From: Chthonomonadia bacterium | Lineage (GTDB): Bacteria > Armatimonadota > HRBIN16 | Length of the DNA stretch: 43,562 nucleotides | NCBI GenBank assembly: GCA_013314755.1 | Contig: JABUFA010000032.1 | Location: 1 to 43,562, forward strand | Reading direction: 5' to 3' | Part shown: positions 5,544 to 10,765 of the stretch, in pieces | Layout of the letters: every line of letters begins with the position of its first letter | How positions within the stretch are numbered: the first letter of the stretch is position 1 | Notes under the pieces: generated by a model | Told to the model about the DNA's origin: nothing | The model's database searches: none | The model's input: the letters and a program-made list of their open reading frames with translations, nothing else | Made by a program: the position numbers and the translations under genes

Positions 5544-6611
5544 ATGATTGCACAGTGGATTCTGGGTGGGCTGCAGGCTCTGCAGGATTACGTGGTATAT
5601 CACGTGCTGACCTGCCTGATACCTGCCTTTTTGCTGGCGGGAGGTATGGTATCGTTTGTGCCGAAGGAGGCGGTGTTGCGATACCTGGGGATTGCTACCC
5701 ACCGTGTTGTCACCTACATCAGCGCCGCCTTTGCCAGTTTCTTCGTAGCAGCGTGCTCGTGCACGGTGATACCGGTTTCGGCAGGCGTCTACTTTGCCGG
5801 TGCGAGCATCGGCGCGGCGTTTATTATCCTGTGGGTGGCGCCTGCCACCAACATACTGGCGTTGACCTACACCGGGGCTATTCTGGGCGGAGATATGGCA
5901 GTGGTGCGCGTCATCAGCGCGTTCCTGATGGCGCTGGTGGTGGGTACGGTTATGACCATCGCCTTCCGCCGTGAGGAGGCACAGCGATTGGCAGAGGCGC
6001 AGCAGGCAAACCTCGGTATCGGCTCCGACCCGGGAGCGCGGGTGAAGCGGAGCGACGTGGTGCTGTTACTGCTCATCGTGCTGGACCTGCTTGCGCCCAA
6101 CTACCTGATTCGCACCGGTCCCTACTGGCAGAAGGTGGTGGTGTGGGCGATAGGCATGGTAGTCGTCGCCGGTTACGCATGGCGCACCAAGACGCGGGAG
6201 GAGATACGCCACTGGCTGGGTGAGACGTGGTGGTTTGTGCGCATCATCCTGCCTCTGCTTCTGGTGGGCGTGTTCATCGTGGGCGTCATCGGCGCGTTGC
6301 TTCCCGAGTCGCTGGTGCAGCGGCTGGTGGGCGGCAACAGCCTGCGAGCATCGTTCATCGCCACCCTGGTGGGCGCCATCAGCTACTTCGCCACCATGAC
6401 CGAGGCGCCGTTCGTGCATAAACTGATGCAGCTGGGCATGGGCAAAGGTCCTGCCCTGGCGCTGCTGCTGACGGGACCGGGTTTGAGCCTGCCCAACTGG
6501 ATTGCCATTGCACGGGTGTTCGGCGTGCGCAAGTCAGTGGTATACGTGCTGACGCTGGTCGTCCTGGGCACTCTGGTGGGATGGATAGCCGGAAACTTCG
6601 TCTGGAAATAA
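5544..6611 (+). CDS. ArsP/SO_0444-type permease (DUF318 family)
   Basis: A 355-residue polytopic membrane protein with about eight or more hydrophobic helices. The helix containing AACSCTVIPVSAG (Cys71, Cys73) and the later ATMTEAPFVHKLM and LTGPGLSLPNWIAI segments are typical of the ArsP/DUF318 family, whose studied members export trivalent organoarsenicals. The central loop (about residues 140-165) is cytoplasmic and charged. GAAGGAG lies before ATG 5544. An ArsR regulator is divergent and a CPRC thioredoxin-like gene follows 21 bases later; this trio supports a role in metalloid or organometal efflux, though the substrate is not readable from sequence. Confidence 0.85.
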   Translation: MIAQWILGGLQALQDYVVYHVLTCLIPAFLLAGGMVSFVPKEAVLRYLGIATHRVVTYISAAFASFFVAACSCTVIPVSAGVYFAGASIGAAFIILWVAPATNILALTYTGAILGGDMAVVRVISAFLMALVVGTVMTIAFRREEAQRLAEAQQANLGIGSDPGARVKRSDVVLLLLIVLDLLAPNYLIRTGPYWQKVVVWAIGMVVVAGYAWRTKTREEIRHWLGETWWFVRIILPLLLVGVFIVGVIGALLPESLVQRLVGGNSLRASFIATLVGAISYFATMTEAPFVHKLMQLGMGKGPALALLLTGPGLSLPNWIAIARVFGVRKSVVYVLTLVVLGTLVGWIAGNFVWK

Positions 6612-6632
6612 CACGGCAAGGAGGTAGGAGAG

Positions 6633-6896
6633 ATGAAAATTGAGGTTCTGGGTTCGGGTTGTCCCCGCTGTCACACGCTGGAAAAACATGCAAAGGAAGC
6701 GGTGAAGCAGCTGGGCATCAATGCGGAAGTAGAGCACATCACGGACCTCCAGCACTCCATCAAGCGAATGCAGGAGGTTCGGGCGCTGTCTACGCCGGCG
6801 CTGGTTGTGGACGGCAAGCTGGTTCTGCAGGGCAAAGTGCCTGCCGTGCCCGAACTGGTCGGGATGCTGGCATCGCTTGCAAGCCAGGAAGGCTAA
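6633..6896 (+). CDS. Small thioredoxin-like (glutaredoxin-like) redox protein
   Basis: An 87-residue single-domain thioredoxin-fold protein of the type often annotated as thioredoxin family protein TM0996/MTH895. It has a CPRC active site at residues 10-13 just after the first beta strand (MKIEVLGSGC), and STPALVVDGKLVLQGKVP contains the cis-proline. AAGGAGG precedes ATG 6633. It lies directly behind the ArsP-type permease and likely shares its ArsR-controlled promoter; a plausible role is reduction of the metalloid or permease cysteines (inference). Confidence 0.88.
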   Translation: MKIEVLGSGCPRCHTLEKHAKEAVKQLGINAEVEHITDLQHSIKRMQEVRALSTPALVVDGKLVLQGKVPAVPELVGMLASLASQEG

Positions 6897-6953
6897 CGAA
6901 CGCAGGAAAAAGGCACTCTGGGCGTGAATTAAAAGGGCGGAGGATTTGCCGAC

Positions 6954-7196
6954 ATGCCCAGAGTGCGAGTACTGGTAACGCTCAAACCCACCTTGCTGGA
7001 TGCGCAGGGCAGGACGGTGCAGGAAGCCCTGCACGCGCTCGGCTACACCAATGTCAATCAGGTGCGCATCGGCAAGGTGATTGAGCTGGATATTACCGAT
7101 GAGGGACAGCCGGTAGAGGCGCAGGTCAAAGAGATGTGCGACCGTCTGCTGGCGAACCCAGTAACCGAACTGTACGCCATCGAGGTGCTGGAATGA
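6954..7196 (+). CDS. purS: Phosphoribosylformylglycinamidine synthase subunit PurS
   Basis: PurS is the small 80-residue structural subunit of the three-part FGAM synthase, linking PurQ to PurL. The family pattern is clear: [28 protein letters not shown], then [11 protein letters not shown] and [23 protein letters not shown] lies upstream of ATG 6954. Its stop overlaps the purQ start by four bases. purL is not in the window. Confidence 0.95.
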
Positions 7197-7894
7197 AGTT
7201 CGGCGTGGTGGTGTTCCCCGGTTCCAACTGCGACGCCGACGCCTACTACGCTATCCGCGACGTGCTCCAACAGCCGGTGGAGTATATCTGGCATCAGGAG
7301 GAGCACCTGCACGGTGTGGATTGCGTGATTCTGCCCGGCGGCTTCTCGTATGGCGATTATCTGCGCTGTGGAGCCATCGCCCGCTTCTCGCCGGTGATGC
7401 AGGCGGTGGAAGAATTCGCGAGGCAGGGCGGATTGGTGCTCGGCATCTGCAACGGCTTCCAGATATTGTGCGAGGCGCACCTTCTGCCGGGCGCACTGGT
7501 GCGTAACGAGGGACTGCGTTTCATCTGCAAGCATGTGTATCTGCGCGTGGAGAACGAAAACACCCCCTTTACCAACCGCTGCAGGCGAGGGGAGGTACTG
7601 CGTATTCCCATCGCGCATGGCGAGGGGCGCTATGTGTGTGACCGCGAGACCCTGCAGGAACTGCAGGCGAACGAGCAGATTATCTTTCGCTACTGCGACA
7701 GCGCGGGCGCGATAACCCACGAAAGCAACCCCAACGGCTCGGTGGCAAACATCGCAGGTATCGCCAACGAACGGTTCAATGTGCTGGGCATGATGCCCCA
7801 TCCGGAACGCGCCTGCGAAGCGATTTTAGGCTCCGAGGATGGGCTGAAGATATTTCAATCACTCGTACACACCGCGCTGACGGTGGCGCGATAG
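7193..7894 (+). CDS. purQ: Phosphoribosylformylglycinamidine synthase subunit PurQ
   Basis: The glutaminase subunit of FGAM synthase, 233 residues, which releases ammonia from glutamine for the PurL reaction. It is a class I glutamine amidotransferase: nucleophile Cys86 in LGICNGFQ, with His203 and Glu205 in [23 protein letters not shown] is typical of PurQ. The ATG at 7193 overlaps the purS stop (ATGA), which decides the start over an in-frame upstream codon. Confidence 0.95.
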
Positions 7895-7909: not shown

Positions 7910-8479
7910 ATGGCAAATTTCAAAGAGGGCGACCGGGTACAGATTGTGACACGCGAGCAGACCAACGGCGACATCAAGGAGCGCAGCTACTATCCGTACA
8001 TGGGCGGGCTGAAGGGCACCATCTACCGCCTGTACAGCGATGGGCGCGCCGCGGTGCAGATTGACCTCGACAGCCTGCCCGAATCGATACGCACGCGCCA
8101 CACCGAAGCGCAGGAACGCATGAAAAACCGCTGGATTGAGGGGCTTTCTGAGGAGGCTCGCTCGCGTCTGACGCCCGAGGAGCGTGAGTTCCACCTGAAC
8201 TACGTCCTGCTGGTGCGCGTGGAAGACCTTCAGCCCGAGGGCAAGCGCACCCGCTCGGCATCCGCCGCAAAGGGCGAACCGTCCGCCCCAGCACAGAAGG
8301 CACAAGACACCGCCGCGCCTTCTGCCAAAAAACAAACCACTGGCGCAGAACCTGAAGCAAGGGCACGCTCTGCTGCCGCCGCAGCTGTCGAACCCGAACT
8401 CCCCAAACGCAAAACGCTCAGGGACCTGGAAAAGGCGGAGGAGGAGTTCCTGAAAAGCCGCGCCCGGAAAAGGGGATAG
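7910..8479 (+). CDS. Uncharacterised protein with SH3/KOW-like N-terminus
   Basis: I do not recognise this 189-residue protein. The first 110 residues look folded: an SH3/KOW-like start (FKEGDRVQIVTREQ, then GGLKGTIYRLYSDGRAAVQIDLDSL) and a helical part with a conserved-looking EERE FHLNYVLLVRVEDL segment. Residues about 115-165 are a low-complexity Ala/Pro/Lys linker, and the end is a charged helix rich in Lys, Arg and Glu. No membrane segment or signal peptide. A strong GGAGG/GAGAGG precedes ATG 7910, 15 bases after purQ. It ends three bases before the methyltransferase gene, so it may be co-transcribed with either neighbour. Confidence 0.75.
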   Translation: MANFKEGDRVQIVTREQTNGDIKERSYYPYMGGLKGTIYRLYSDGRAAVQIDLDSLPESIRTRHTEAQERMKNRWIEGLSEEARSRLTPEEREFHLNYVLLVRVEDLQPEGKRTRSASAAKGEPSAPAQKAQDTAAPSAKKQTTGAEPEARARSAAAAAVEPELPKRKTLRDLEKAEEEFLKSRARKRG

Positions 8480-8482
8480 CCG

Positions 8483-9763
8483 ATGCAGGAACCTGTGGTA
8501 TCAGATACTCAGTTGAAACTCTGGAATATCGACACGTGCCAGACGGAGGCTTCCGAAGAGGGCACACAGCCGATACTGTTCCGCAACTCGGTTCCTGAAA
8601 TCAGCTCCACGACCGCAGCCACTTTTGGTATCTACAGGTATCCGGCGAAGTTCATTCCGCAGGTTATCGCCTACGTCATCAAGCAGTATGCAACTCCCGG
8701 CATGACCCTTTTTGACCCCTTCGCTGGCTATGGTACGGTGGGCGTGGTCTCGCGGGTGTACGGGTATGATTATGAGCTATGGGACCTGAATCCGCTGATG
8801 AAGGTCATTCACGATACGGCGACCGCGGAGATTCCCCGTCTAGACGTGGATACAGTCCTACGACAGATGCGTGACAGCACCGAAGTCTTCACCCCCCGCT
8901 GGTCTCATCTGGATTACTGGCACCCTGCGCCGTTTATTCCGCTGCTGCAGCGAGCGTGGGGTTTTGTCCATTCGCAACCTGAAGAGGTGAAAACCCTTCT
9001 CATCATTCCGCTGATGAAGGTCACCCGCTTTTTCTCGCATGACGACGAAAAGGTGCACAAGCTGTATCGCTCCCGCAGGGCGAGGGCAAAGATAGAGGCG
9101 CTGCTTCAGGATGATTGGGAAGCCACTTTCTGGGTAATGCTTCGGCGGGAGGTGTTCAAGCTGGTCGCCGGGCTTCATGAGTATCACCAGATGTCGCCGC
9201 ACAGGGTGAACGCCCATATCCGCGCTGGCATCGACACCCTGCATACCTGTCTGGATCGCGAAGTGGGTATGATGATCACCTCCCCTCCGTATCTGCAGGC
9301 GCAGGAGTATATCCGCTCTACCAAGCTGGAGCTGTTCTGGCTGGGCTATTCGGAAGAGGATATCCGGTGGCTGAGCAGCCGGGAAATCCCCTACAGGCGC
9401 GTGGAACCGATACCGATATACTCCGAACTGTTCCACAAGCACCGTGCCATGATTGAGGAACCGCATCTGCTTGCGCTTTTTGATGCGTACTTCCATGCCA
9501 TCATGGGGTGCTTTACCCGGTTAGCAGAACGCATCACAGACTACCTGTGCATCTTTGTTGGACCAGCTAAAGTGCGCACCGTGCCGATACCAATTGACGA
9601 GATCATCCGAGAGCACTTTCAGCATCTGGGGTGGAGCCATGTGGTGACCTATGTGGACCAAATCGTCTCCCGTGTCATGTTCAGGTCACAGGTCAACCCG
9701 GCTTCAGGCTTGGAGGAGAGCCGCATGAAAACGGAGCATATGCTTGTGCTCAGGAGGTATTGA
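8483..9763 (+). CDS. DNA methyltransferase (probable type II, N4-cytosine or N6-adenine)
   Basis: A 426-residue amino-methyltransferase acting on DNA. Motif X is YRYPAKFIPQ (51-60), the SAM-binding motif I is DPFAGYGT (78-85) and the catalytic motif IV is TSPPY (266-270), followed by KLELFWLGYSEEDI. Motif I comes before motif IV with nearly 180 residues between them, which would hold the target-recognition region; SPPY is common in m4C enzymes but does not settle the base. It lies three bases before a probable restriction endonuclease, making a type II restriction-modification pair. The ATG at 8483 starts shortly after the preceding stop, with only a weak GGGATAG-like ribosome-binding site. 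Confidence 0.85.
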   Translation: MQEPVVSDTQLKLWNIDTCQTEASEEGTQPILFRNSVPEISSTTAATFGIYRYPAKFIPQVIAYVIKQYATPGMTLFDPFAGYGTVGVVSRVYGYDYELWDLNPLMKVIHDTATAEIPRLDVDTVLRQMRDSTEVFTPRWSHLDYWHPAPFIPLLQRAWGFVHSQPEEVKTLLIIPLMKVTRFFSHDDEKVHKLYRSRRARAKIEALLQDDWEATFWVMLRREVFKLVAGLHEYHQMSPHRVNAHIRAGIDTLHTCLDREVGMMITSPPYLQAQEYIRSTKLELFWLGYSEEDIRWLSSREIPYRRVEPIPIYSELFHKHRAMIEEPHLLALFDAYFHAIMGCFTRLAERITDYLCIFVGPAKVRTVPIPIDEIIREHFQHLGWSHVVTYVDQIVSRVMFRSQVNPASGLEESRMKTEHMLVLRRY

Positions 9764-9766
9764 AAA

Positions 9767-10765
9767 ATGGATCAGACACAAGACAGCATTTTCCTGCAGA
9801 AGCAGCATCTGAGCACATCCAGCAGGTTTTACACTACTATCCAGCCCGCTCTTCCTGAAATTGCGCCGCTTTTGGGCGGCTATGCTTCGGCAATTAGCGA
9901 GTCAGACCTAAGTAATCTCCTGTTATCGGCATGTCGCGCCAACGACCTCGGGATTGTTCAGCAAAGTGGGAGGCGGCGCTTCACAACACTCTCTTCTTTG
10001 AAGCAGTGGGTGACTTCAAGATTGCTTCCGTGTACGGTGATGGTGCATCTCGATGACCCCGACGTGCTACGCTTGCTTGTGTTCAGCATCGAGATGACGG
10101 AGCAAATGTTTCTGGGGGGAACAAGAGCGACCATCAGCGCGAAAGGGTTTCGGGAACGGCAAAGACGCTATGAGGAGATCCTCGTTGAGCACTTCATTGG
10201 GCGGTTAGGAGAGGTGCTTCTGAAAAAGTTTCTGGAAACCCATTTTCCCGGCGTTCAGGTCGAGCTCGACTGGAATATATCCCCAGAACGCCATCTGTAT
10301 CGTAGCGATATCGTGAACGCTTCGCATCAAATTAGCATCAAGACCACCACAGCTCTTGCTGGTATATGGGCGGAGGCAGACATCTCTGCGGAATATGGGG
10401 TTATGGTGAAATGTATCGTGCCGCGTGCCACGATTATACAGTTCTTCATCGAAGCTTGTGGCTATAGCCGGTTGATGGACTTCGTTGCCAGTCATATCCC
10501 AGCAAGCGATGCTCGTTTTCACGACCTGATTGCAAACATTCGGCAGCGGATACAGCAGTTTCAGTGTGGACATGCGGTGAGCACTTTCGTCGGTTTCGTA
10601 CTGGGCTATTTCAAAACAAGCAACGACACGCTGCGCGAGATAGGGGAAGAACTGGAATATATGGGGCCCGTACGTGACAAGCGTCACTTCTGTGAGGTGA
10701 AGAATCTTTTGTGGGAGCGGCATGATTGGGAACGTTTCTTGGTAGATAACGGGCTGTGGAAGTAG
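9767..10765 (+). CDS. Probable type II restriction endonuclease
   Basis: A 332-residue protein directly behind the methyltransferase. I do not recognise a specific named family. A PD-(D/E)XK-like core is visible: Glu149 in a helix (GRLGEVLLKKFLETHF), Asp181 in YRSDIVNAS, and the SIK strand at 190-192 (QISIKTTT). The acidic residue normally two before the lysine is a serine here, so the site is atypical or the acid lies elsewhere. Base composition is more AT-rich than neighbouring genes, as often seen for transferred restriction genes. Its position immediately after a DNA methyltransferase is the main support for the function. Confidence 0.7.
   Translation: MDQTQDSIFLQKQHLSTSSRFYTTIQPALPEIAPLLGGYASAISESDLSNLLLSACRANDLGIVQQSGRRRFTTLSSLKQWVTSRLLPCTVMVHLDDPDVLRLLVFSIEMTEQMFLGGTRATISAKGFRERQRRYEEILVEHFIGRLGEVLLKKFLETHFPGVQVELDWNISPERHLYRSDIVNASHQISIKTTTALAGIWAEADISAEYGVMVKCIVPRATIIQFFIEACGYSRLMDFVASHIPASDARFHDLIANIRQRIQQFQCGHAVSTFVGFVLGYFKTSNDTLREIGEELEYMGPVRDKRHFCEVKNLLWERHDWERFLVDNGLWK

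What the first reader, a model, noticed from the sequence alone, without database searches (positions are those of the whole stretch)
8483..10765. Restriction-modification pair with an atypical nuclease site
A methyltransferase (FxGxG before SPPY, nearly 180 residues between) is followed by a 332-residue protein with Glu149, Asp181 and SIK (190-192). Ser replaces the usual acid before the lysine. I could not place it in a known restriction family; more AT-rich DNA suggests transfer.
Basis: partly seen in the sequence, partly recalled or inferred. Interest (0 to 1): 0.55.

Follow-up and report, generated by a model that had tools for sequence, protein, structure and literature searches.

The report
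Imported DNA-cutting defence gene pair
A bacterium carries an imported pair of genes, one that probably marks its own DNA and one that probably cuts unmarked foreign DNA, and the cutter seems to have moved one of its catalytic acids to a neighbouring strand, a known kind of change in a family without a curated name.

Summary
Window 8483-9763 encodes a 426-aa amino-methyltransferase (FAGYG 80-84, SPPY 267-270), and 9767-10765 a 332-aa protein with E149, D181 and S190-I191-K192. Related loci show a Type II restriction-modification unit: 25 distinct loci in several bacterial phyla and Archaeoglobales. In 23 of 25 the methyltransferase lies directly upstream; the other two are nuclease fragments. 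E149, D181 and K192 are invariant in 20 aligned nucleases, Ser190 in 19 (one Cys). The acid has probably migrated, as in CCGG-family enzymes, but this is not that family: profile comparison gives 0.1% probability, against 98.3% for the positive control. The nearest family is an unnamed PADLOC REase family whose examined relatives sit beside C5-methyltransferases. Transfer is supported: in 7 of 9 congeneric genomes the flanking genes are neighbours with no insert, and the pair has 53% GC against 60%. The methyltransferase is 57-58% identical to those of archaeal viruses STSV1/2 and remotely related to partners of CCNGG-cutting enzymes, so a CCNGG-like target is plausible but unproven. A new family with a known kind of active-site shift.

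The parts
8483..9763 (+). DNA methyltransferase, 426 aa: motif I FDPFAGYG (77-84), motif IV TSPPY (266-270), 182 residues between FAGYG and SPPY; N4-cytosine type inferred from SPPY
   Evidence: ORF; PF01555 E 1.9e-5, just under its cut-off; PADLOC MTase_II PDLC03322 E 1.1e-25; 57-58% identity to STSV1/STSV2 methyltransferases
9767..10765 (+). Restriction endonuclease, 332 aa, PD-(D/E)XK-like with Ser at the acid position
   Evidence: ORF; PADLOC REase_II PDLC03411 E 4.4e-5; directly behind the methyltransferase in 23 of 25 distinct loci; AlphaFold2 model pLDDT 84.8, pTM 0.83
10211..10213 (+). Codon of E149, on the helix 135-159 before the core strands
   Evidence: invariant in 20 of 20; helix in model
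10307..10309 (+). Codon of D181, predicted metal ligand
   Evidence: invariant in 20 of 20
10334..10342 (+). Codons of S190-I191-K192, core strand 189-194
   Evidence: Ser 19 / Cys 1, Lys 20 of 20; strand in model
10373..10375 (+). Codon of E203, candidate migrated acid on the next strand 201-204
   Evidence: Glu 19, Asp 1 of 20; Asp at the matching GxWxD in 4 of 4 sequences of the related family
10148..10168 (+). Codons of F128-R134 (FRERQRR): conserved basic loop, possible DNA-contacting loop (inference)
   Evidence: F128, R129 and R133 invariant; 120-130 is a low-confidence stretch of the model

Best explanation
This is a horizontally acquired Type II restriction-modification unit. The first gene methylates an amino group, most likely N4 of cytosine, in a short, probably palindromic site; the second cuts that site when it is unmethylated. 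The nuclease is a PD-(D/E)XK-like enzyme in which E149, D181 and K192 keep their usual roles, Ser190 stands where the second acid normally is, and E203 on the next strand (GxWxE) supplies the missing carboxylate. Shown: the gene pair, its conservation as a unit, the invariant residues, its place between two genes that are neighbours in most congeners. Inferred: cleavage, the role of E203, methylation type and target (a CCNGG-like site is the best guess).
For: Methyltransferase directly 5' of the nuclease in 23 of 25 distinct loci; the other two (L005, L029) are nuclease fragments. Pairwise identities of the two proteins track each other over 18 loci (r = 0.93, 0 of 2000 permutations as high). 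E149, D181, K192 invariant; position 203 acidic in 20 of 20 and Asp at the matching place in 4 of 4 sequences of the related family (profile match probability 94.9%, E 4.2e-8). AlphaFold2 model places K192 in strand 189-194 and E203 in strand 201-204. A weakly matching protein (L082; E 0.006 in its genome, and 2.5e-4 among 1300 ORFs) has a canonical E-V-K exactly under S-I-K. The flanking genes are about 100 bases apart in 7 of 9 other genomes of the genus, and 0 of 9 gave a nuclease hit.
Against: No activity is known. Foldseek found no solved structure at E 0.001 or better, best E 0.74, and in the VIA-align second look the best nuclease is NaeI at Z 4.1, rmsd 6.9 over 116 residues, below unrelated helical proteins at Z up to 4.9, so the fold is not confirmed by comparison. 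One of 20 relatives matches a Pfam family of unknown function (DUF6650, E 2.4e-4), not a nuclease family. D181 is beside a one-residue bridge, not in a clear strand. E203 is two residues off the K+13 spacing of the CCGG-family sequences seen here. No carrier-specific avoided motif was found.
Confidence: 0.72

Rival explanations
1. It is a CCGG-family enzyme (PspGI, Ecl18kI, EcoRII relatives) too diverged to see, with the PD...K...D/E active site and a CCWGG or CCNGG target.
For: A lysine with a later acid matches the published motif; the methyltransferase is related (25%, E 2e-32) to that of a CCGG-family pair in the same genome, and its viral homologue is annotated 'similar to PspGI methylase'.
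Against: Profile comparison with two CCGG-family alignments gives 0.1% probability each, whereas those two match each other at 98.3% and one of them finds Ecl18kI, EcoRII and PspGI in the PDB. No R-(D/E)R follows the lysine.
Confidence: 0.12
2. The catalytic acid is E149 or D205 rather than E203; the enzyme uses E149, D181 and K192 with Ser190 as a tolerated loss.
For: E149 is invariant, and a Glu on the corresponding helix matters in PfoI (E113A about 50-fold less active) and is conserved in NgoMIV. D205 is at K+13, the CCGG-family spacing seen here.
Against: D205 is Asn or Gly in 2 of 20 aligned nucleases, while 203 is acidic in 20 of 20 and in the 4 related-family sequences.
Confidence: 0.25
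3. The nuclease is degenerate or inactive and the locus survives as a methyltransferase.
For: The nuclease is slightly less conserved than the methyltransferase (56% vs 62% mean identity; lower in 147 of 153 pairs); broken or fragmentary nucleases exist elsewhere.
Against: The window nuclease is full length; it and 19 relatives from several phyla keep the same residues.
Confidence: 0.06
4. The second gene is not a nuclease but an accessory DNA-binding or regulatory partner.
For: No Pfam or NCBIfam hit and no confident PDB fold match.
Against: PADLOC REase_II hits (E up to 1) in 13 of 20 aligned members, the window's included; conserved E...D...xxK in that order; constant pairing with a methyltransferase.
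Confidence: 0.06

Closest known systems
PADLOC REase_II family PDLC03411 (member seen: L081, E 8.2e-68; its relatives on three Thermus plasmids, L087-L089, found by tblastn)
   Same: Helix with LGE, later D, S-I/V-K, then GxWxD/E; profile-profile probability 94.9%, E 4.2e-8
   Different: These four are next to a C5-cytosine methyltransferase (L081 by profile; Thermus by annotation) instead of an amino-methyltransferase; similarity is remote. No name or recognition site was found here.
CCGG-family restriction enzymes (PspGI, Ecl18kI, EcoRII, Cfr10I, NgoMIV)
   Same: Works like them in one respect: Lys kept, acid probably supplied from further on
   Different: No sequence relationship detected; acid at K+11 on a strand rather than K+13; no R-(D/E)R after the lysine
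Methyltransferases of Sulfolobus viruses STSV1 and STSV2
   Same: 57-58% identical over 94% of the window methyltransferase; fall among the RM methyltransferases in the tree (93/88 support, under the tree's starred level)
   Different: No annotated nuclease in the 6 kb either side of it in STSV1
Methyltransferases partnered with MvaI/BcnI-type nucleases
   Same: Alignable over 85-92% of the length at 22-24% identity; in 7 of 13 plasmid loci examined (of 39 matching records) an MvaI/BcnI nuclease lies next to the methyltransferase or one small gene away
   Different: Remote; the window nuclease is not MvaI/BcnI (no PF15515 hit). The other 6 of 13 have HNH, phospholipase-D-like, unnamed or no clear nuclease neighbours
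NaeI (1ev7, 1iaw)
   Same: The only restriction enzyme in the structural second look, Z 4.1 and 3.7
   Different: Not above the unrelated rows (Z up to 4.9); rmsd 6.9 and 4.8; no Pfam NaeI hit

Membership tests
Type II restriction-modification system | Separate methyltransferase and nuclease genes next to each other, no ATPase or specificity subunit | tested here: met
   23 of 25 distinct loci have the two genes adjacent; none of the five flanking window ORFs scanned against Pfam is an RM gene
Type II restriction-modification system | Both enzymes act on the same DNA site | not testable with these tools
   Needs methylome and cleavage assays
PD-(D/E)XK nucleases | Conserved D and K following a conserved helix, K on a core strand | tested here: met
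   D181 and K192 in 20 of 20; helix 135-159, then strand 189-194 with K192; D181 is only beside a bridge residue
PD-(D/E)XK nucleases | Acidic residue two before the lysine | tested here: not met
   Ser 19, Cys 1 of 20; absent also in accepted members such as the CCGG family
PD-(D/E)XK nucleases | Fold match to a solved member | tested here: inconclusive
   Foldseek none at E <= 0.001; NaeI Z 4.1, not above unrelated rows
CCGG-family restriction enzymes | Detectable sequence relationship to the family | tested here: not met
   hhalign 0.1% against two family alignments of 7 and 4 sequences; control 98.3%
CCGG-family restriction enzymes | Permuted active site PD...K...D/E | tested here: inconclusive
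   Acid at K+11 in 20 of 20 and at K+13 in 18 of 20; role untested
CCGG-family restriction enzymes | R-(D/E)R recognition motif following the lysine | tested here: not met
   Not present after K192 in A4; present in A8 as RER after K. An RER lies upstream instead, at 129-131 in the window protein
PADLOC PDLC03411 REase | Profile match | tested here: met
   E 4.4e-5 for the window protein, 13 of 20 aligned members at E up to 1; remote compared with L081 (8.2e-68)
PADLOC PDLC03411 REase | C5-cytosine methyltransferase as partner (as in L081 and its three Thermus relatives) | tested here: not met
   Partner is an amino-methyltransferase
N4-cytosine methyltransferases | FxGxG and (S/T)PPY motifs | tested here: met
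   F80 and G82 in 19 of 19, G84 in 18 of 19, SPPY in 19 of 19; rows left out of that alignment: L006, and L009, L017, L028, which are cut or split
N4-cytosine methyltransferases | Methylates N4 of cytosine | not testable with these tools
   SPPY predicts it from general knowledge only

The most novel reading that the evidence does not exclude
A separate restriction-enzyme family, spread among bacteria and Archaeoglobales many of which are thermophiles, with its own permuted active site (E...D...SxK...GxWE, the acid given by the strand next to the lysine strand), whose matching methyltransferase has been captured by archaeal spindle-shaped viruses as protection against it.
Probability: 0.35. 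Interest if true: 0.45.

Novelty: new variant of a known kind. Interest (0 to 1): 0.33.

Why it matters
It would add a restriction-enzyme family with no Pfam or NCBIfam model for the window protein and no solved relative found, show the catalytic acid moving independently of the CCGG family, and link an archaeal virus methyltransferase to a nuclease it may evade. Since several hosts are thermophiles (from general knowledge), its members could be heat-stable cutters.

Tried and rejected
Target by site avoidance: all 16 four-base palindromes and 24 degenerate motifs, and the eight lowest six-base palindromes per set, were compared by eye in 243 kb of this genome, 340 kb of a congeneric non-carrier (G183) and stretches of other carriers. 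CCWGG is low in this genome (0.41) but as low in the non-carrier (0.43), and near normal in carrier G207 (0.86). GCWGC is low here (0.33 against 0.68 in G183), in G300 (0.33) and in the Archaeoglobales carriers (0.38), but 0.64 in carrier G207 against 0.57 in the remnant-bearing G206, and 0.90 in G305. I saw no motif that follows the carriers; inconclusive.

CCGG-family membership: rejected by profile comparison with a positive control. Structure search: Foldseek against the PDB gave nothing; most VIA-align rows are helical matches to 219-272, and NaeI is not above them. BFVD gave six uncharacterised phage and Pandoravirus proteins at E <= 0.001; I had no tool to fetch their sequences. The first AlphaFold2 job with 4 sequences was poor (pLDDT 54.9).

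PDB by sequence: window nuclease no match to E 10; profile A4 best E 0.11, unrelated; methyltransferase none to E 1, profile A5 best E 0.16, a cytosine-N4 methyltransferase. Pfam on the 20 aligned nucleases: scattered weak hits, best DUF6650 in 1 of 20 (E 2.4e-4).

NaeI family in 151 genomes of the phylum and PDLC03411 in 6 genomes: no match, and the control genomes did not ring either, so uninformative. Nuclease in plasmids, phages and viral contigs: no match (the last three scan short peptide patterns). Literature searches showed no paper on this family in the listings, combining restriction-modification with Archaeoglobus, Thermocrinis and Armatimonad terms, returned none. Read as passages: PMC6344858, PMC551604. 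REBASE is not among the tools.

Full report
What is there. The window is contig C8 of a 3.95-Mb draft genome. One relative in the same phylum is titled 'uncultured Armatimonadetes bacterium'. Window 8483-9763 and 9767-10765 are two same-strand ORFs 3 bases apart, the first beginning 3 bases after the stop of a 189-aa ORF. The first is a DNA methyltransferase: PF01555 E 1.9e-5, just below the curated cut-off, and PADLOC MTase_II E 1.1e-25 over residues 42-426. The second has no Pfam or NCBIfam match at E up to 1, no PDB sequence match at E up to 10 (profile best 0.11, unrelated) and one weak PADLOC match, REase_II PDLC03411, E 4.4e-5 over residues 70-204.

The pair is a unit. A search of 291 genomes of the phylum gave the nuclease in 5, the window's own included, and a scan of one genome for each of 84,980 species, by two short peptide patterns and so not exhaustive, gave 23 loci. 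After merging duplicates these are 25 distinct loci; by record title or tool kinship they include Armatimonadota, Thermocrinis, Archaeoglobales, Thermodesulfovibrionales, and MAGs labelled KSB1, Bacteroidetes/Chlorobi, Poribacteria, Parcubacteria, Hydrogenedentota, Coatesbacteria and Thermotoga. Most are MAGs, so single contigs may be misassigned. The methyltransferase lies directly upstream in 23 of 25 (cut by a contig end in L009 and L017, split into two frames in L028); the two without it, L005 and L029, have only nuclease fragments. later added fragments in G335 and G504 that are not in this count. Over 18 loci with both proteins aligned the identities track each other, r = 0.93, 0 of 2000 permutations as high.

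The nuclease site. Twenty of the 25 nucleases were aligned; the five broken or fragmentary ones were left out, and one included, L026, ends early at a stop. E149, D181 and K192 are invariant; 190 is Ser in 19 and Cys in 1; 203 is Glu in 19 and Asp in 1; 205 is Asp in 18, Asn in 1, Gly in 1. D168, E109, E136, R133, W201 and K215 are also invariant. The AlphaFold2 model from these 20 sequences has pLDDT 84.8 and pTM 0.83: helix 135-159 with E149, D181 beside a one-residue bridge, strand 189-194 with S190 and K192, strand 201-204 with E203, strand 210-217, helix 220-243. A weakly matching 180-aa protein (L082; E 0.006 in its genome; 2.5e-4 among 1300 ORFs) has a canonical E-V-K aligned with S-I-K, which supports Ser190 sitting where the acid normally is.

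Relation to known families. A clear PDLC03411 member, L081 (E 8.2e-68), was found in a genome of the phylum of Archaeoglobaceae MAG G307, next to a C5-cytosine methyltransferase. Its relatives on three Thermus plasmids (tblastn E 2e-25 or better) adjoin annotated DNA cytosine methyltransferases. The four share the LGE helix, the S-I/V-K strand and GRWLD in place of GIWAE; profile comparison with the window family gives 94.9%, E 4.2e-8. The nuclease core thus occurs with two kinds of methyltransferase. The CCGG family uses the same kind of shift (PD...K...D/E, recognition motif R-(D/E)R; passages of PMC6344858; a 'PD-XXK-E' variant, passages of PMC551604). But comparison with two CCGG-family alignments built from this phylum gives 0.1% each, the two match each other at 98.3%, and one finds Ecl18kI, EcoRII and PspGI in the PDB. 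So it works like that family in one respect and is not a member by sequence. Foldseek finds no solved relative; NaeI at Z 4.1, below unrelated rows, is only a hint. Against a plain nuclease reading, 1 of 20 aligned nucleases hits a Pfam family of unknown function, DUF6650.

The target. The methyltransferase is 57-58% identical to enzymes of Sulfolobus viruses STSV1 and STSV2, the STSV1 one annotated 'similar to PspGI methylase'. In the tree they sit inside a 13-row group with RM methyltransferases, support 93/88, under the tree's starred level. In STSV1 no annotated nuclease lies within 6 kb. Remote relatives (22-24%) on plasmids have an MvaI/BcnI nuclease next to them, or one small gene away, in 7 of 13 loci examined, of 39 matching records; 6 of 13 do not. 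A 25% relative in this same genome is paired with a CCGG-family nuclease. That PspGI, EcoRII and Ecl18kI cut CCWGG or CCNGG is; that MvaI and BcnI cut CCWGG and CCSGG is recalled. A CCNGG-like target is therefore the best guess, about 40%. Site avoidance did not support any motif.

Transfer. GC is 53.4% for the pair; 14 of 443 same-length windows, overlapping ones included, are as low (mean 60.2%, s.d. 2.5). None of the 9 other genomes of the genus gave a nuclease match. In 7 of those 9 the 189-aa gene and the peroxiredoxin gene that flank the pair here lie about 100 bases apart on one contig (G179, G180, G183-G187); in G181 they are on different contigs and in G182 the peroxiredoxin was not found. 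In 6 of these loci tested, DNA similarity of the upstream flank runs to about position 8460, near the end of the 189-aa gene; the downstream flank matched in only 1 of 6, from about 10862 onward, so the downstream edge is not resolved. The trees mix bacterial and archaeal rows, for example a starred methyltransferase group (96/86) of a Bacteroidetes/Chlorobi MAG, two Archaeoglobaceae and a Thermotoga MAG, though 13 of 17 inner branches of the nuclease tree are not starred. Together this fits repeated transfer and an insertion between two conserved neighbours here.

Verdict. It is a Type II pair whose nuclease belongs to a family without a curated Pfam or NCBIfam model, with a probable migrated acid at E203. 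The finding is sound and moderately interesting, not a new kind of system.

Noticed in passing
G000:C66, locus L100:6092-8328 (-): The same genome has a second RM pair: a CCGG-family nuclease (PF09019 E 3.5e-13) with a 446-aa methyltransferase 25% identical to the window's; in the four genus members with a hit it lies beside genes that look like scpA and scpB (named from recall). PF09019 hits in 4 of 10 genomes of the genus and 17 of 291 of the phylum.
   Followed up: partly
L055, L056, L057: Archaeal viruses STSV1/2 and a metagenomic viral contig carry methyltransferases 54-58% identical to the window's; L057 has other methyltransferase-like ORFs around it (by eye). This may be protection against restriction.
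   Followed up: partly
L005 (G206), L029 (G309), L075 and L079 (G335), L074, L078, L080 (G504), L050-L051 (G307): Several genomes hold only fragments of the nuclease (G307 besides an intact copy); no methyltransferase was found in the stretches scanned around L005, L029 and G335; in G504 the fragment is at a contig end, so nothing can be said. The search was by nuclease, so this is biased.
   Followed up: partly
G207: L004 and L006: One genome carries two copies of the pair, one with a premature stop in the nuclease.
   Followed up: no
L087-L089: Thermus plasmids carry a relative of the PDLC03411 nuclease, an annotated cytosine methyltransferase and a third ORF; in L087 the third ORF has an HhH-GPD (endonuclease III-like) domain, perhaps for repair of deaminated methylcytosine.
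   Followed up: partly
BFVD A0A6J5NVM1, A0A6J7WYC6, A0A2U7UBU7 and others: Six uncharacterised phage and Pandoravirus proteins match the nuclease model at E <= 0.001.
   Followed up: no
window 5544-7894: Neighbours upstream include a permease-like ORF, a short thioredoxin-like ORF and purS/purQ-like genes (only purQ checked; the rest read by eye). Most window ORFs were not searched.
   Followed up: no
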